Position numbers and translations under genes: made by a program. Of a DNA stretch of 64,000 nucleotides, positions 44,507 to 55,740 are shown piece after piece (position 1 is the stretch's first letter; each line of letters begins with the position of its first letter). Below the pieces are notes generated by a model that was given only the letters and a program-made list of their open reading frames with translations, was not told the DNA's origin and searched no databases. The stretch comes from Mayamaea pseudoterrestris (taxonomy: Eukaryota > Bacillariophyta > Bacillariophyceae > Sellaphorales > Sellaphoraceae): NCBI GenBank assembly GCA_027923505.1, contig BROI01000014.1:372001-436000 (forward strand). The letters run 5' to 3'.

Positions 44507-45626
44507 TTACATCATTTGACGATGCGGCAAGTCTCCTTCCGTTAAACCATCGCATATAGCCCGCCAGTCTCGCATGGTCAAAGTCAAGACGGATTGCTTG
44601 TGAGGGCAGGCCTCTTCGTTGGTTTTGGCGGCAGACGACGCCGTCACATAGATTCCACCACGCTTGCGCACACCTCCAAGTCCGGCGGCTTCCTCGCGAA
44701 GACAAATCTTGGCTTCTCCCTTTTTAATCAAAAAGCTAAAGTGGAAAATGTTTTCCACTGTTTGGGTGAAGGAGCAAGGGTTGCAAAGGTACTTGACGCC
44801 GTCAATGTCATTTCCCAACCCTGATTTTTGATTTTCCTTGATGCGCTTCTTGAGTTGCTTCTCCATTTGCTTGATTGTCTTTTCCGTCGCGCTGAGCTTG
44901 TTTGGGTCGCCCTGTTGCTCTCCTTGTTGAATCTCTTGCGGCTTGACTGCTTCCGTCAAGTCAGCGTCTTGCTTCTTACTGCGCTGCTTGGGTGCCTTGC
45001 GCTCTTTAATAACTGGCTCGGCCGCCAGCGGTCCAGACAAAAAGGTGACGCGCTCCGGAAGGGCATTGAAGCAAACGCCAGCCTCCTTGCCGAGCATGAG
45101 CCAGTTGAAGCGACCGTCCGTCGAGCACTTTTGCTTGAAGCGGTAAATGAGCTTGCCAGCGTCATAGCGAGGAACCTGGAAAGAGTGAAAGCGAGGCAAT
45201 GAGAATTGATTAGGTCGAATCGCTATACAAATTGATAAAAGCTTCAATCATTCACGCATACAAAAATGACGGGCTCGAATCATAACGTACCTGAACAAGC
45301 GACTCGACATATTGCTCCATCTTTTGCGCATGCAAATGCACATTCTCGGCATCCAAGACTGCTTCGCGCGAGTATTTGACTTTTGCCTTGAAGAGTTCGT
45401 TGTTGCGCAGCGCAAGCGCGCCCAGCTGGTCGGGAGCAGTGGCCGACTTGAGTCGTTCATTCAGCGTTCGCTGCTCCATGCGAGTCTCTCGACGAATCTC
45501 CTTGGTGAGGCCGCTGTCCTCAAAGACAGTTACTTGCTTGCGGCGCTTGCGACTACGATGCGTTTCCATCGTTTCGTCGTTCAAATCGACCAGGTCATGG
45601 TCGTGGGCGTGAGGAGACGGCGGCAT
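44507..45626 (-). CDS. NSE4: SMC5/6 complex kleisin subunit NSE4
   Basis: Exons 45626-45291 and 45175-44507 (115-nt intron, GTACGT donor, TTCCAG acceptor, phase 0) give 334 residues. The start is the ATG at 45626; the frame extends upstream but without family similarity. Features: helical N-terminal part binding SMC5 (AKVKYSREAVLDAENVHLHA), the central LMLGKEAGVCFNALP region, and the diagnostic C-terminal winged-helix block NPCSFTQTVENIFHFSFLIK followed by GLGGVRKRGGIYVT. NSE4 bridges the heads of SMC5 and SMC6 and binds NSE1/NSE3; the complex acts in homologous recombination and replication-fork repair. The middle is Lys/Gln-rich. Nuclear location. Confidence 0.85.
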
Positions 45627-45973
45627 GGCGAAGGAAGCGTTGCTTGTGTTTTTGGAAATGGATTGTAGTGTGTGAAGTGATGGAGCTGCAGCGATAATCG
45701 CCACGAAGGTGGGCACGGCGGCCTCGGCAAGAACTTCATTGAGAGTGCGACTTTTAAATTTAAAGGACGCGCCTGTCGAGCCTGCCGCCAATTGTTTTGG
45801 CGCGCGATTCAACGGGCACCGTTTGCTAGCTATTACTAGCCACCCTGCAGAAATTAGCGCGGCAACGAGAAGCACTTCTGTACTTTTTTTCAGAAAGTGA
45901 TCACTGAATTCGGTATCTAATGCCTACTTTAAGATATATCAATGCTACATGCAACAACACTTATTTAACTTAA
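45627..45973. other. Intergenic, upstream of NSE4
   Basis: Promoter region of NSE4 and 3' flank of the IDI-SQS gene. The NSE4 frame is open upstream to 45875, but the extension shows no domain. No other element is seen. Confidence 0.5.
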
Positions 45974-48341
45974 CTACAGAGCCTTTGCCTCCGGTTGCAA
46001 AACGCTTGCATCCTTCAAAGAACTCGCCACCGTCCAAGGTCCGTAGTACCACAGCAGACCAGAGCTTACAGCAAGCCCGGCCTTGACGAGACTCTTGTAT
46101 TCTGTTCCGTACTCGCCGTAGTAAATGCCGAGACCAAGGAGCGCTCCGCAGGCAATCACCCTCTTGGTCTGCATTCGTCGTTGCACTATTGCGCCAGCAT
46201 CTGTCAGCAACGAAATCTTTTCGCAAATTTGCTTAGTTCGCTCAAACGTCGGGTCAATCACACCATTGCTTCGCGCTGTTTTGGCCTTGTTGATAATGGC
46301 TTGCGCAAACGAGTAGAATGTATTGTGCACCTCGGCAATGTTGTTGGTCCGAAGCAACAGCTTGCACGAGAGTCCCTTGCGGATCTTGACAACGCCAGTG
46401 AAGACATCAAGGTTGCTGTAGCACTTCGCCAATGTAGCAATGGCCATGACTTGCGGAATGGCGCAGAACCGAAAGACTTCGGCGCACTCCAGCTTGTCCA
46501 TGTATGCCAAACAATCTGGTACCAGTTCGAGCGCGTCAGTGACCAGTTCGTTCAAGCACTCCAAAGCCTTGGCTTGCACTTCGGGAGTAGTGGGATCGGC
46601 AAAGTATCCAAGCTCTCCAGTCGCCGAGTACTTTTTCCATATTGACTGCGGCCAGAAGGCCCGCTTGTCGACGTAGTCTTCAAGGTAGTCGCGAATAATG
46701 TTTGTCTTTTGCAAAAAGAGACCCATTTGATCACTCAGCTTCAACTCGCCCGCCAGTGATGGCTGCTCCAAACCCGACGCCGCAAACAGCCGACTCAAAC
46801 CTTCTCCAACAAGACCAGCGACAAAGTGACAGTAGCGATTGTATTCAGTGACATCCTTGGTACCTTGACCAAGATCCTTGCCAACAAACTCGGCCATGCC
46901 TTGCGCCATGCGCTGCGTAATGTCGCGAATGACTTGCTGCGACGCGGGCTGTAAACAAGCAAAAACAGCATGTGCCTTGGGAAACTCTTGCAGCAAGCGT
47001 CGCTCGTCGTTCTCACCGACGCCGTCCATGCGCCACGTTTCGTCGCCGAGAGCATTCTTGGTGAAGTCGCGCAAGTGCTTGATTTTGATCGCATGACTTT
47101 CAAACGCCTTCGTATCATCCTCAATGGTATCGAGTGCTCTCAAAACCAGGTAAAAGATGAGAATGTCAACCAACAGAGTTGGTGGAAGCTGTTGAATGAC
47201 GGCGGCAAAGGACCGCGACACCTTGACGAGAATGTCATTGCAAAAGGCCAGCTCCTCCTTTGGAAACTTGGTTTGAATGTAAGCCTTGTCCAAGTTGGAT
47301 GCCAAAGGTTTTAGGTAGAGAATGGTGAGCGCCGCAAAGACTTCGTCAACGTGGACAAGTTGCACCAGCGTTGACTCCTTGTGAGTCGTGACCTTGCCGT
47401 AGGCTCCTTGTTTCTTGCTGAGACGATGATCATTGCGAATGTGAGATATAAATGTAACATTGTCTATAAAACATCATTTCGTTAATTAGCATCACTCACT
47501 TTACATCTCCCTTGGATGTTTTTGTAAACAATGCTTGCGCATTGCCGGCGCCGCCAAAGTGTTCCGCCGGTGGATCAAACTCACAAATCGTTTGATAGTC
47601 GTCATACCTGCCAGCCATGGTGGCGTCCAAGTTGGACCACCAGTTCCAAAGCCACTTTTCACAAATCAAACGAAACCATGGACTAAAAAGTAACTTTTTG
47701 TCTTGAAACATATGCTTCAATTCATCCATGCTCACCCACTTGCAGTTGGATACTTCATCGTCGTTGGGATGCAGCGGCATGACATTCTTCGCATTGTCTA
47801 CACAAACAAACAGCACATAGTCAATCTCATGCTCACCCCAGGGACTGTTTGGTCCGTGCGTGACAGTATCGGCCGCCCAGTAGTGAAGCCGCGTCACAAA
47901 GTGAAAATCTGACACGCTCAATCCACGAATGCCCAATTCATGCTGCAGCTTGCGAATCGCCGCATGCTTGACGCCATTCACTTGTCCCTTGATTACACTT
48001 TTTGGCAGATCCACTTCACTTTGCTCCATGCCGTGCAGTGGATGCGAGCAGCACGTGTTCGTCCAAACGTTGGGAAAGGTAATCTTGTGCGATGCGCGCT
48101 GCTGCAGGAGCAACTTGTTGGTCGACTTGTCGAACAGAAAAACACTAAAGGCGCGATGCAAGACTCCGTGCGGCTGCTGATTGCTAAACACGTGGGAGTT
48201 TTGCTTGGAGGCGGATCCAATGATATTGTCGTTATTGTCAACGACTAACACGGAGTCCTTGAGCATGAGGTCGGTTTGCGACAAGCCGGATGCCCATGGA
48301 GTCGATGATGGAGCAGCGGCGGCGGATGACGAGGAAGCCAT
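45974..48341 (-). CDS. IDISQS: Isopentenyl-diphosphate isomerase / squalene synthase fusion
   Basis: Exons 48341-47500 and 47417-45974 join across an 82-nt intron (donor GTGAGT at 47499, acceptor ending TCTCAG at 47418, phase 2) into 761 residues. The IDI half (1-~280) has the Nudix-type core: NTCCSHP with catalytic Cys98, AAIRKLQHELGI and WGEHEIDYVLF. The SQS half has FCNDILVKVSRSF, the first aspartate motif DTIEDD (377-382), the second DYLED (524-528), and two hydrophobic C-terminal segments for ER anchoring. The SQS part has no in-frame ATG of its own near its start, so a separate gene is unlikely. An upstream in-frame ATG at 48428 would add a hydrophobic leader. The fusion couples DMAPP supply to sterol synthesis. 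Confidence 0.93.
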
Positions 48342-48663
48342 GGTAGTATCGACGTGTAGTATCAGCAGCAGTATCGAGTAGTAGTAGAGCAAGTAGAACC
48401 AACCGCACCTTGGCTGCCAGTGGTTCATGGTTTGTCCAAGGTCGACGAAGCAACGAAAGTGGGTGGAAGCAGCAGCTTGCTTCCGCATTGGTCTGGAGGC
48501 GCGCTGGCGCGCGCAAAAATGAATCAGCGGCACTGAAAGAAGCTGATGCGACATGACAGCAACGCGCCGCGCCACCAACCATGACGAACCAAGCCGCTCG
48601 CGTTTGTTCCATTTACAGGTTTAATTCACACCAGCAACTATATACAACTACAGATACAAAATA
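48342..48663. other. Divergent promoter of IDI-SQS and PABPN1-like genes
   Basis: 322 bp between two divergent start codons. In-frame extension of the IDI-SQS gene reaches into it (ATG at 48428, with a hydrophobic run). No other feature is seen. Confidence 0.5.
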
Positions 48664-49387
48664 ATGGAAGCTCAACCCACAACTGAAAAAACTGCTGCTG
48701 ATCACCACGAAGACCAAGTCGCCGACGATGACGACGACGACGAAGACTTGGAGAAGCTGCAGGCCGAGATTGCTCGCATGGAGGAGCAGGCTGCACTCAT
48801 TGCCAAGGAAAACGAAGAACTCCAACGGAAGCGACAGCAACTGGTTGGCACCAAAGCGGATGAGTCTGCTGCAAAAGCGGGAAGCGAAAAGACGCAGCTG
48901 CAGCGCGATGGAAACAGCATCTACGTGGGACAAGTGGATTACTCGACCACGCCGGAGGAGCTCTTGGCGCATTTTGAAGCATGCGGATCGGTGGAGCGAG
49001 TCACGATTGTTTGGTATGTGCGAGTGAAAATGCAGGAATGTGTGTCGTCAGCCTCGATATAGCTTTATTCATTCTCATTTACCCCCTATACCTTGCAGCG
49101 ACAAATTCACTGGCCGTCCGAAGGGTTTCGCGTACTTGGAGTTTGACAATGAGGCCGCCGTTGAAAACGCCATGAAGCTTGACAATTCCGAATTCAAGGG
49201 CCGCAACCTAAAGGTAACACCCAAGCGTGTCAACCAGCCGGGCATGGGTGCGTCGGCGATGCGCGGCGGTGGAAGAGGTTTTCATCGGGGTGGCGGACGA
49301 GGCGGTGGCTTTCGGGGTGGAGGTCGCGGACGAGGTAGAGGAGGATTTCGTGGCGGCGGCGCGCGAGGATATCATCCTTACTACTAA
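48664..49387 (+). CDS. PABPN1-like nuclear poly(A)-binding protein
   Basis: Exons 48664-49013 and 49099-49387 (85-nt intron, GTATGT donor, CTTGCAG acceptor) give 212 residues. Layout: acidic N-terminus ([11 protein letters not shown]), coiled-coil helix (residues ~30-65), one RRM (~83-160) and a Gly/Arg-rich tail. The RRM has RNP2 SIYVGQVDY and RNP1 KGFAYLEF, with the split [18 protein letters not shown] rebuilt by splicing, as in PABPN1/Pab2. PABPN1 binds growing poly(A) tails and controls their length and export. The RGG-type tail is a methylation target in this family. Nuclear location is expected. Family assignment is strong; orthology to a single human gene is likely but not proved. Confidence 0.9.
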
Positions 49388-49631: not shown

Positions 49632-51096
49632 TTACTTTCGCTCAACAAAGAAGGCCTTTTCCGTTTCCTCTGGTGAGCTATAGGATGCTCCATTCACCTT
49701 GGCGCCTGCTGCCACCCATTCCTTTAATTCCTCTGGAATCGTCACTTTACCGTCTGCGGATGTCACCTTGACCCATGCTTCCGAGTCGGTGCGAAGTGGC
49801 GTTCGCTCAATAAACGCGTGGAACCTTGCCTCCTCAATCAAATTGTCCATGGTTGGTCCCAGCTGAATGCCTGCCTCCGCCGCTGCGCGACGCTCCTCTG
49901 GTGTCATGGAGTCAAAGTCCTTGTCATCGGCCAAGGCCGTTTCCCAATAGTCTGGAAGGTTAATTTTCGGTGGGTTTGCCTTGAAGTACGCCTTGACAGC
50001 CAACGACTGCGTCAAGGTGAAAATGTTGCTCGTGAACCAGTAAATTGTCAATCCAGCCGGCACTTGCAGCGAGAAGAAACCAATCATGAGTGGCAAGAAC
50101 TTGAGCACCGTTTGTGACTTTTCCAAGGTTTCCTTTTCGTCGTCGCTCATGTTTTCATCCACTGGCGGTTGCAGAGCACGCATGGTAACACTTTGAAGCG
50201 TCACCAGCACCACGGGCATGATGAGATACGCAATCGTTGTTTCCCATCCCAAGGATGGCGTCGGCAAGCCTCCTCCCACGGCTGCCTCCCAGTTTTGAGT
50301 CAACCAGTCCAAGCCGCGATAATCGGGAGGAGACACTGGTCCCTCCAAGGATGGAATCCAAAGGAAGGGTTCCGATATCTCGCCATCCAACGCCAGCAAC
50401 CGTACTCCGCGATATAAGCCAAGAAAGATTGGAAGCTGAACAATGCTAGTCAAGCATCCCGCCAAGGGATTTTGATTGGCGTCCTCGTAAAGTTTGGCAA
50501 CGGCTTGATTCTGAGCGCTTTGGTTATTCTTAAATTTTAACTTAATCTCGGCGACATACGGCTTGAGCACTTTCATGTACTCTGCCGACTTTGTTTGTTG
50601 AAGTGACAGTGGAATCAAGAGGGAGCGACACACTAACGAAAGAGTAGAAAGTGTATAGGTGAGACATGGATTTCGACGGAAAACTCGCGCACCAATTCCA
50701 ACGCAAGACTCGCTGCTTTCTAAACTCACTGGCAGTAAATATGGCAATGGATATTCCCCATGTTTGTTCCACTCCGATATTCTTTAATGGTTGATCAATA
50801 ATGCTATGAACCCCCAGCAACGTATTCTTGAATATATTCAAGTAGCTCTGCCACCATCCGCCGTCGTCTTGCGCAGCAGCTGCAGCCGCATCGGAAAGCA
50901 ACTGCGAAGGCAGCCAGTCGGAATGTTGCGCGAGTGCATTTGATATATCAGTCAAGTATTCCGGAGAAAATACTTGAAGTGGTCGAACATGCTGTAGCGT
51001 TCTGGTCGTTGGCATTCGTTGCGTTGTGAAGCCTGTCACGCTCGTGGTGGCGCCTGAAAGCAGTAGAAAGCTTGAAAATTTCATGATATTTAACAT
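49632..51096 (-). CDS. ALB3: Thylakoid insertase ALB3 (YidC/Oxa1 family)
   Basis: Exons 51096-50730 and 50632-49632 (97-nt intron, GTGAGT donor, TCGTTAG acceptor) give 455 residues. The N-terminus is a signal peptide ending SVTG-F-TTQRMP, the plastid signature. Splicing gives WGISIAIFTA|MCRSLLIPLSLQQTKS, the first core transmembrane helix and hairpin of YidC/Oxa1. Further family blocks are KLYEDANQNPLAGCLTSIVQLPIFLGLYRG and FLPLMIGFFSLQVPAGLTIYWFTSNIFTL. Alb3 inserts light-harvesting proteins and photosystem subunits into thylakoids with cpSRP. The C-terminal ~120 residues, where Alb3 binds cpSRP43 in plants, are hydrophilic and not obviously related to the plant motifs. The presequence points to the plastid, not mitochondria. 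Confidence 0.92.
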
Positions 51097-53169: not shown

Positions 53170-55740
53170 ATGATGCTATCTTTGTTACGGACCTATTGCT
53201 GGTTGACGTTGCTTGTTGCCGCCAATGCATTCCATTCTGCGAATCGTTTTCGCTCCTTCACCAAACACTTGGCAATTGACGCATTCGCAAGCAAGACAAC
53301 TTTACATGTCGCGACGGCTCCCGTCGCAGAATCTTCTCGCTTACGCAAAGCCAAGCTGCTACTAGAACAGCTGAGTGAAAATGAAGACTATCAAGATTTG
53401 CTCGAAACGACGGCAACAACAACAGCAGCAACCACTTCAACTACTCCATCTCCAGCAATCATTCTACCCGATTCCGTCTTTTTCAATGGCCACTTGACTG
53501 CCAGCAGCAGCAGCAGCAGCAGTAGCTCCACTGGCACCAAGAGCAGTCAAAACTACGTGACACGCTGGGCCCGCGGCGTCAAGGTGGCCGAACCCTTGGT
53601 GAAATATGATCCAATCCAAGCCGAAACGTTGCTCTTTCGGCAACCAACAAAGTGGGTGGTGCGCAACTTTCAGATTGCACTTCCGATTGGATGGTGGGCC
53701 GTGGGTGTCGTTACCGACTACGTGCTGGGGCAGCGCACCCAGCGCCATCGGCAGGCGCGGGCAAAGCAACTGCGCCAGGCCATTAGCGACTTGGGACCGG
53801 CCATCATCAAGGGCGGTCAAGCGCTGGCCAGTCGGCCCGACTTGCTTCCGGGCGAGTACTTGGTGGAGCTGCAAAAGTTGCAGGATGATGTGCCGCGTTA
53901 CAGTAACGAGTTGGCGTTCCAGACGGTGGAGCAAGAGTTGGGGCAGCCGTTTGAAAGTGTGTTTGAGCTGCTGGAGGATGAACCGGTTGCTGCCGCGTCA
54001 ATTGGGTAAGACAACTAATAGTCGAATGAGATGATGAAAAGGTAAAGATTGATATCATATATTATTGCTGACTCATCCTTCGCTCGCGCTTAATCCCAGA
54101 CAAGTGTACAAGGCGCGGCTCAAGGCGAATGGCGACACGGTGGCACTAAAGATTCAACGACCTGGGTGCGAGGAAGTCATTGCTCTTGATTTATACGTGT
54201 TACGATGGTGGAGTGGAGTATATAATCGCATCTTTGAGTTGTTAAATAGAAGCATTGATGTTCAAAATATTATTGACGATTTTGGGACGCTCATTTATCG
54301 GGAAATCGATTACGTGGCGGAAGCTGCCAATGCCCAACGCTTCAACGAGCTATACGCCGGTGTCAAAGATATCTTTATTCCAAAGATATACAGTGAGCTG
54401 ACAACTAGCAAGGTTCTAACAATGGAATGGGTTGATGGCTTTCGGTTGACGGATGTTGAGACGCTCCGGCGCTACGGATTAGACGAGACTAAGCTGGTCG
54501 ACATTCTTGTGCAAAGCAGTATGCAGCAAATTCTGCAAAATGGGTTTTACCATGCTGATCCACACGCTGGTACGTAACAACAAAAAAGTCTTCGTTGTTC
54601 TTGTTTTGCTATGCGCTTGCCATCTCATCTCACATACGACTAATAGGCAACATTTTGGCGTGTCCTGACGGCAGACTGTGCTACTTGGACTTTGGGATGA
54701 TGAGCTACGTCGCCAGTCACCAGAGAAACGGTTTCTTGCTCGCCGTGGTACACATTGTTAATCGAGATTGGCCCGAGCTTGTACGGCTTTATCAAAAACT
54801 TGGTTTCATTCCAGAAGGAACTGAATTGAAACCGATTGAAGATGCTTTGGAGCGAGCCATGCCTGATGTTCTGAACGCCGATATTACGGAGTTGAATATT
54901 AAGAACATTTTCAATAAGTTGGGCGATATCTTTTACAAATATCCCTTCTCTCTTCCTCCCTTTTACATTGCAATTATCCGATGCCTGGGTGTACTTGAAG
55001 GATTGGCCATTCAAGTTGATCCCACTGCTAAAATTGTGAGTGGTGCTTATCCTTACGTAGCCAGCCGAGTTTTGACTGATCCACAACCCGAGTTACAAGA
55101 AGCCCTGCGACGGCTTGCGTTGAATCCAGACGGGACTATCAGGTGGGGCCGACTGGAGGGCTTGCTGGAAGAGGCACAAACGTCGCAAGGGTATGATCCC
55201 TCGGCGGCACTTGATGTACTTTCAAATTACCTGCTTTCGCCAGACTCTGACAACCTAATTGAGGATCTCTTGCAGCAAGTCGTAAACGCCGCCGATAGCT
55301 TGGGCACCGAGTCCATTCGTTATGTGCTGGATGCTTCTCGAGCACTTATTATAAATGATGAAGTTGCAGCGGTAAGGGCATTTCGCAACTTGCAAGATAT
55401 TGTTGAGGCTGCACGAAGCGAGAACGCCGTCAAAGCCGTCAGAAACAAGGTAGGAGAAGACCTTCGAGACGTCTTGCCAGAGCCGACACCTTCAATGAAA
55501 CGGTTCTGGAAGATTATCACCCTGCTTAGCGCCAGAAACGGCCAAAATGATGTCGCCAACTTTATTCCAGTAATAAGGAAACTCGCACAGGAGCCGCGGA
55601 TACAACGTGCAGCAAACGAGATCGCTGCAAAACTTGGCGAACGCTTGCTCAGTCGGGGACTACGGGCAGCCTTTGGCCTTCCGCCTCCTACATTTGGTCG
55701 AAGTAGTCAAGCTTCGACAGTCACGGAAGATAATGTATAG
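53170..55740 (+). CDS. Plastid ABC1/UbiB-type (ABC1K) atypical kinase
   Basis: Exons 53170-54005, 54100-54569 and 54647-55740 give 799 residues. The N-terminus is a signal peptide ending AANA-F-HSANRF, the plastid signature. Kinase features: the KxGQ motif as KGGQ (214-217), the AAAS motif (274-277) just before the first intron, VALK with Lys296, DPHAGN at the second intron (HADPHAG|NIL) and DFG in YLDFGMMS (450-452). ABC1K proteins regulate prenylquinone metabolism, plastoglobules and stress responses. A poly-Ser/Thr region (80-125) precedes the domain, and ~270 residues of helical sequence follow it. Introns are 94 and 77 nt. Location predicted in plastid. Confidence 0.92.

What the first reader, a model, noticed from the sequence alone, without database searches (positions are those of the whole stretch)
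45974..48341. Two enzymes of sterol synthesis fused through an 82-nt intron
Read as genomic ORFs, IDI and squalene synthase look like two adjacent genes. A GTGAGT donor at 47499 and a TCTCAG acceptor at 47418 restore one frame (phase 2). The SQS half has no own ATG near its start, which argues against two proteins. IDI-SQS fusions are known from diatoms and were reported from some other algae, so this is a strong taxonomic marker as well as a channelling candidate. Automated annotation could split it.
Basis: partly seen in the sequence, partly recalled or inferred. Interest (0 to 1): 0.7.

Follow-up and report, generated by a model that had tools for sequence, protein, structure and literature searches.

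The report
Fused sterol-pathway gene of diatom type
An alga's genome joins two enzymes of sterol building, IPP isomerase and squalene synthase, into one gene across a short intron; the sequence supports this, but such fusions are already known from most diatoms, so it is an ordinary find.

Summary
On the minus strand, removing 47499-47418 (82 nt, GTGAGT...TCTCAG, phase 2) joins an IDI exon to an SQS exon in one 761-aa, 85.0 kDa frame. Both halves pass curated equivalog cut-offs. Frame rescue alone is weak evidence: 19 GT-AG pairs rescue this junction. Stronger points: the first Met in the SQS frame is fusion residue 411, behind the first aspartate-rich motif, and the same fusion is published for most diatoms and some haptophytes and heterokonts. 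The genome looks diatom-like: silicon transporters, an oxidosqualene cyclase, no conventional squalene epoxidase found. Among its four SQS_PSY genes this is the one of squalene synthase type; a second, stand-alone IDI lies on another contig. Corrections: direct channelling is unlikely because FPP synthase acts between the two enzymes, and the fusion is not diatom-specific. Open point: keeping the intron would end translation after residue 281, leaving an apparently complete IDI. Splicing, activity and the species were not observed. A new member of a known kind, of low interest.

The parts
47500..48341 (-). Exon 1: IDI half, fusion residues 1-280 plus two bases of codon 281
   Evidence: TIGR02150 173.1 bits against a cut-off of 105.8; NUDIX; best PDB relatives 2icj and 2dho; TNTCCSH at residue 94, EHEIDY at 170
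47418..47499 (-). 82-nt intron in the linker, phase 2, GTGAGT...TCTCAG
   Evidence: Sequence and frame; inferred, not observed in RNA; one of 19 frame-restoring GT-AG pairs, one of 2 with a GTRAGT donor and a CAG/TAG acceptor
45974..47417 (-). Exon 2: linker end, SQS half and stop codon
   Evidence: TIGR01559 409.5 bits against a cut-off of 286.75; SQS_PSY; best PDB relatives 3vj8 and 1ezf; LDTIEDD at residue 376, YCHFVAGLVG at 476, NIIRDYLED at 520, first Met at 411
48342..48428 (-). Possible 29-aa N-terminal extension with a hydrophobic stretch, if the upstream in-frame ATG is used; otherwise 5' untranslated
   Evidence: Open frame; best 19-residue hydropathy mean 1.62; use not tested

Best explanation
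A single nuclear gene of a diatom-type alga encodes a bifunctional IDI-SQS protein of about 761 aa. The pre-mRNA loses an 82-nt intron in the linker. The N-terminal IDI interconverts IPP and DMAPP; the C-terminal SQS turns two FPP into squalene for sterols, perhaps held on the endoplasmic reticulum by its C-terminal hydrophobic segments. The fusion most likely ties the dose and place of an early step and the committing step of the cytosolic route together, rather than passing an intermediate directly, because FPP synthase acts between them. Shown here: both domains, their motifs, the joined frame, no start for a separate SQS. Inferred: splicing, activity, location, purpose.
For: Joined frame of 761 aa. 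Both halves above curated equivalog cut-offs and aligned to solved IDI and SQS. No Met in the SQS frame before residue 411, behind LDTIEDD at 376. Intron size and sites resemble other likely introns here: 86 nt in a phytoene synthase gene, 97 nt at 50729-50633. Among four SQS_PSY genes only this one matches TIGR01559. The fusion is published for P. tricornutum, F. solaris, Haslea and 'most' diatoms. Genome features fit a diatom: 10 silicon-transporter matches, 9 above cut-off; 0 squalene epoxidase matches.
Against: No transcripts. 19 GT-AG pairs rescue the frame. No diatom IDI-SQS sequence was available to align. The C-terminal segments are only moderately hydrophobic: best 17-residue means 1.28 and 1.00, lower than internal stretches of the SQS domain (1.86 over 19 residues). 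Start codon open.
Confidence: 0.88

Rival explanations
1. Two adjacent genes, IDI and SQS, transcribed and translated apart.
For: The genomic ORFs are separate and exon 1 ends in a stop; IDI and SQS are single proteins in many organisms, as in the solved human enzymes.
Against: The SQS frame has no Met before residue 411, behind the first aspartate-rich motif; only 82 nt lie between; the fusion is published in diatoms.
Confidence: 0.04
2. The gene is fused but the main splice is 47584/47464, which drops the end of the IDI part and keeps 46 nt of the proposed intron (748 aa).
For: It keeps the frame and has a GTGAGT donor and a TAG acceptor.
Against: It removes FDPPAEHF, matched in the stand-alone IDI as FDPPPEHF.
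Confidence: 0.03
3. The fused gene makes two products: spliced IDI-SQS and, by intron retention, IDI alone.
For: Retention stops translation after residue 281, beyond the last residue aligned to the stand-alone IDI (263). A review names alternative splicing of IDI-SQS as a possibility (PMC12175399, passages).
Against: This genome has a second IDI gene, and the review proposes the idea for species without one. An early stop may simply send the RNA to decay. No data on splicing.
Confidence: 0.05

Closest known systems
PtIDISQS of Phaeodactylum tricornutum (Phatr3_EG02290)
   Same: IDI fused to SQS in a diatom-type sterol route, beside a separate, putatively plastidial IDI (PMC12168105, passages)
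   Different: Sequences and introns not compared: the P. tricornutum protein is not held here
IDI-SQS of Fistulifera solaris
   Same: Same fusion; the paper used a full-length, intron-containing construct (PMC6723447, passages)
   Different: That protein is reported as chloroplast-targeted and was seen near the chloroplast; location here unknown
HoSQS-IDI of Haslea ostrearia and fusions in some haptophytes and heterokonts
   Same: Same pair of enzymes; predicted cytosolic in Haslea (PMC9033121, passages)
   Different: Not compared by sequence
Single human IDI1 and squalene synthase
   Same: Alignable over the catalytic domains with shared motifs
   Different: Separate proteins

Membership tests
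IDI-SQS fusion protein (diatom type) | Type I IDI domain followed by SQS domain in one frame | tested here: met
   depends on the inferred intron
IDI-SQS fusion protein (diatom type) | One mature mRNA and one protein | not testable with these tools
   No transcripts or proteomics held
IDI-SQS fusion protein (diatom type) | Sequence closer to known diatom IDI-SQS than to other IDI and SQS | not tested
   No eukaryotic reference of the fusion is held; only PDB and prokaryotic relatives were compared
Type I IPP isomerase | Conserved TNTCCSH and GEHEIDY motifs (catalytic roles recalled) | tested here: met
   Aligned to 2icj and 2dho; positions
Squalene synthase | Two aspartate-rich motifs and the YCHxVAGLVG stretch (roles recalled) | tested here: met
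   Aligned to 3vj8 and 1ezf; TIGR01559 above cut-off
Squalene synthase | C-terminal membrane anchor | tested here: inconclusive
   Two moderately hydrophobic segments near residues 701 and 724

The most novel reading that the evidence does not exclude
The linker intron is a switch: retention ends translation just where the IDI enzyme looks complete, so one gene would make either IDI-SQS or free IDI and set the IPP to DMAPP balance apart from squalene output.
Probability: 0.05. Interest if true: 0.5.

Novelty: new member of a known kind. Interest (0 to 1): 0.15.

Why it matters
It shows how an intron-blind gene call would split a known fusion enzyme into an IDI and a headless SQS. The intron near the domain border makes a printed idea (alternative splicing of IDI-SQS, PMC12175399) easy to test with RNA reads. 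Otherwise it confirms a known trait of diatom sterol synthesis.

Tried and rejected
A viral-contig scan with the SQS exon found no match. A GTDB scan with the fused protein gave 22 pattern matches, of which 5 encode relatives, in bacterial MAG records, matched only within query residues 325-661, the SQS half. One of the 5 (L018) was opened: its SQS frame is a 352-aa ORF. So no prokaryotic fusion was seen, by a search that reaches close relatives only. Two attempts to find the small-subunit rRNA gene ended in a machine error, so the species was not determined. A paper search for 'IDISQS' returned 0 papers, although one paper prints PtIDISQS: the term must begin a word. PF04116 gave 6 matches, all above cut-off; this cannot tell an alternative squalene epoxidase from other members, so no claim is made. 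The RRM gene beside the fusion gave 13 frame-keeping GT-AG pairs and was not used as an intron example. No structure was predicted. Rejected or weakened: two separate genes; direct channelling between the two domains; the fusion as a diatom-only marker.

Full report
What is there. The minus strand from 48341 to 45974 carries two reading frames separated by stops. Removing 47499-47418 (82 nt, GTGAGT...TCTCAG, phase 2) makes one frame of 761 codons, 85.0 kDa. The first half matches the isopentenyl-diphosphate isomerase model TIGR02150 with 173.1 bits (cut-off 105.8), the second the squalene synthase model TIGR01559 with 409.5 bits (cut-off 286.75). Pfam finds NUDIX at 61-219 and SQS_PSY at 345-628 in the joined protein and no other family at E 0.001. 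The best solved relatives by sequence are 2icj and 2dho (E 4.1e-44 and 9e-44, 13 distinct sequences matched) and 3vj8 and 1ezf (E 8e-80 and 8.8e-80, 11 distinct sequences matched). TNTCCSH, GEHEIDY, LDTIEDD, YCHFVAGLVG and NIIRDYLED lie in aligned stretches; their catalytic roles are recalled.

Is the intron more than chance? Frame rescue alone is not proof. With donors between 47641 and 47412 and lengths of 40-299 nt, 19 GT-AG pairs give one open frame; 4 of the 19 have a GTRAGT donor, 2 of these with a CAG or TAG acceptor. Other likely introns are alike: 86 nt in a phytoene synthase gene (L003), 97 nt at 50729-50633 in a YidC-like gene and 94 nt at 54006-54099 in an ABC1-kinase-like gene. 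The window-wide scan listed 34 candidate pairs, 15 on the plus and 19 on the minus strand, many of them overlapping alternatives or likely chance, so it serves only as a source of examples.

Why one protein. The SQS frame has no Met before fusion residue 411, after the first aspartate-rich motif at 376; read back, it meets a stop inside the intron without a Met. An SQS begun at an ATG would lack part of its active site.

Genome context. PF00494 finds 5 stretches, four genes, in the 30.6 Mb assembly. Only the window gene matches TIGR01559. The C39 gene matches phytoene synthase models best, its two exon pieces below the whole-protein cut-off; the C22 and C15 genes match HpnD and HpnC far below cut-off and no PDB sequence at E 0.001. 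IDI has 2 loci, both above cut-off: the fusion and a gene on C13, identical at 123 of 253 aligned columns (49%). The C13 frame holds MNRSFLYASMALRAGTLRAFAPPL before the IDI part, perhaps a plastid leader (by eye, recalled motif). Silicon transporters give 10 matches, 9 above cut-off; the control rang in 1 of 14 genomes, below cut-off. Oxidosqualene cyclase gives 2 matches, 1 above cut-off. The PF08491 squalene epoxidase gives 0 matches; the search is exon by exon, and its 14 controls, of which 2 rang, are prokaryotes. Polyprenyl synthases give 7 matches at five loci, 6 of 7 above cut-off. The organism looks like a diatom; the species was not determined.

Literature, all seen as passages found by term, none read whole. 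P. tricornutum has the fusion protein PtIDISQS and a separate, putatively plastidial IDI (PMC12168105); its transcript rises in a lupeol-making line (PMC6330534). SQS in F. [quoted passage not shown] The fusion is reported also from some haptophytes and heterokonts (PMC9033121). A review says that some species have an added plastid IDI and others not, and names dual targeting or alternative splicing of IDI-SQS as possible answers (PMC12175399). Conventional and alternative squalene epoxidase are said to exclude each other (PMC7766473). A study of Skeletonema and Cyclotella lists SQS but the words 'fusion' and 'fused' do not occur in it (PMC7060231). One search on alternative splicing found that one review.

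How it works. Most likely the fusion ties the amounts and place of IDI and SQS together. Direct handing-over is not expected: IDI makes DMAPP, FPP synthase makes FPP, and only then SQS acts. The pair could still gather FPP synthase around it; that is inference. If the intron is kept, translation stops after residue 281, beyond the last residue aligned with the stand-alone IDI (263), so the product would look like a whole IDI. That is the most novel reading; nothing here shows that it happens, and the second IDI gene lowers the need.

Results against or limiting. No transcripts; no diatom IDI-SQS sequence to align. The start codon is open: an in-frame ATG at 48428 would add 29 aa with a hydrophobic stretch (19-residue mean 1.62). 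The C-terminal segments are only moderately hydrophobic.

Verdict. The observation and the fusion reading hold; the wider claims (channelling, strong taxonomic marker) are weakened. A new member of a known kind.

Noticed in passing
L009-L011 (G000:C1:2970661-2974680, minus): Three silicon-transporter matches lie head to tail in one open frame of 1445 codons, so this looks like a triple silicon transporter; such multi-unit transporters are recalled from some pennate diatoms.
   Followed up: partly
48342-48428, minus: An in-frame ATG upstream of the proposed start would add 29 aa with a hydrophobic stretch that could act as a signal or anchor; the DNA is a CTA-rich run and may be plain leader.
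   Followed up: partly
L007:1312-2292, minus (G000:C13): Stand-alone IDI, 49% identical to the fused IDI, with a possible plastid leader holding an AFAP stretch (motif recalled).
   Followed up: partly
L004:1438-2817 minus and L005:1420-2610 minus: Two SQS_PSY-family genes (C22, C15) that are neither squalene nor phytoene synthase by curated cut-offs; function not resolved.
   Followed up: partly
48664-49387, plus: An RRM gene runs divergently from the fusion; its first ATG lies 322 bases from the proposed IDI-SQS start, and it appears to have an intron of its own.
   Followed up: partly
44507-45875, minus: Downstream of the fusion, a frame with an Nse4 C-terminal domain (PF08743); the frame 45252-45875 before it has no Pfam match and may belong to the same gene.
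   Followed up: no
49632-51096, minus: YidC/Alb3-like gene (PF02096) with a likely 97-nt intron at 50729-50633.
   Followed up: partly
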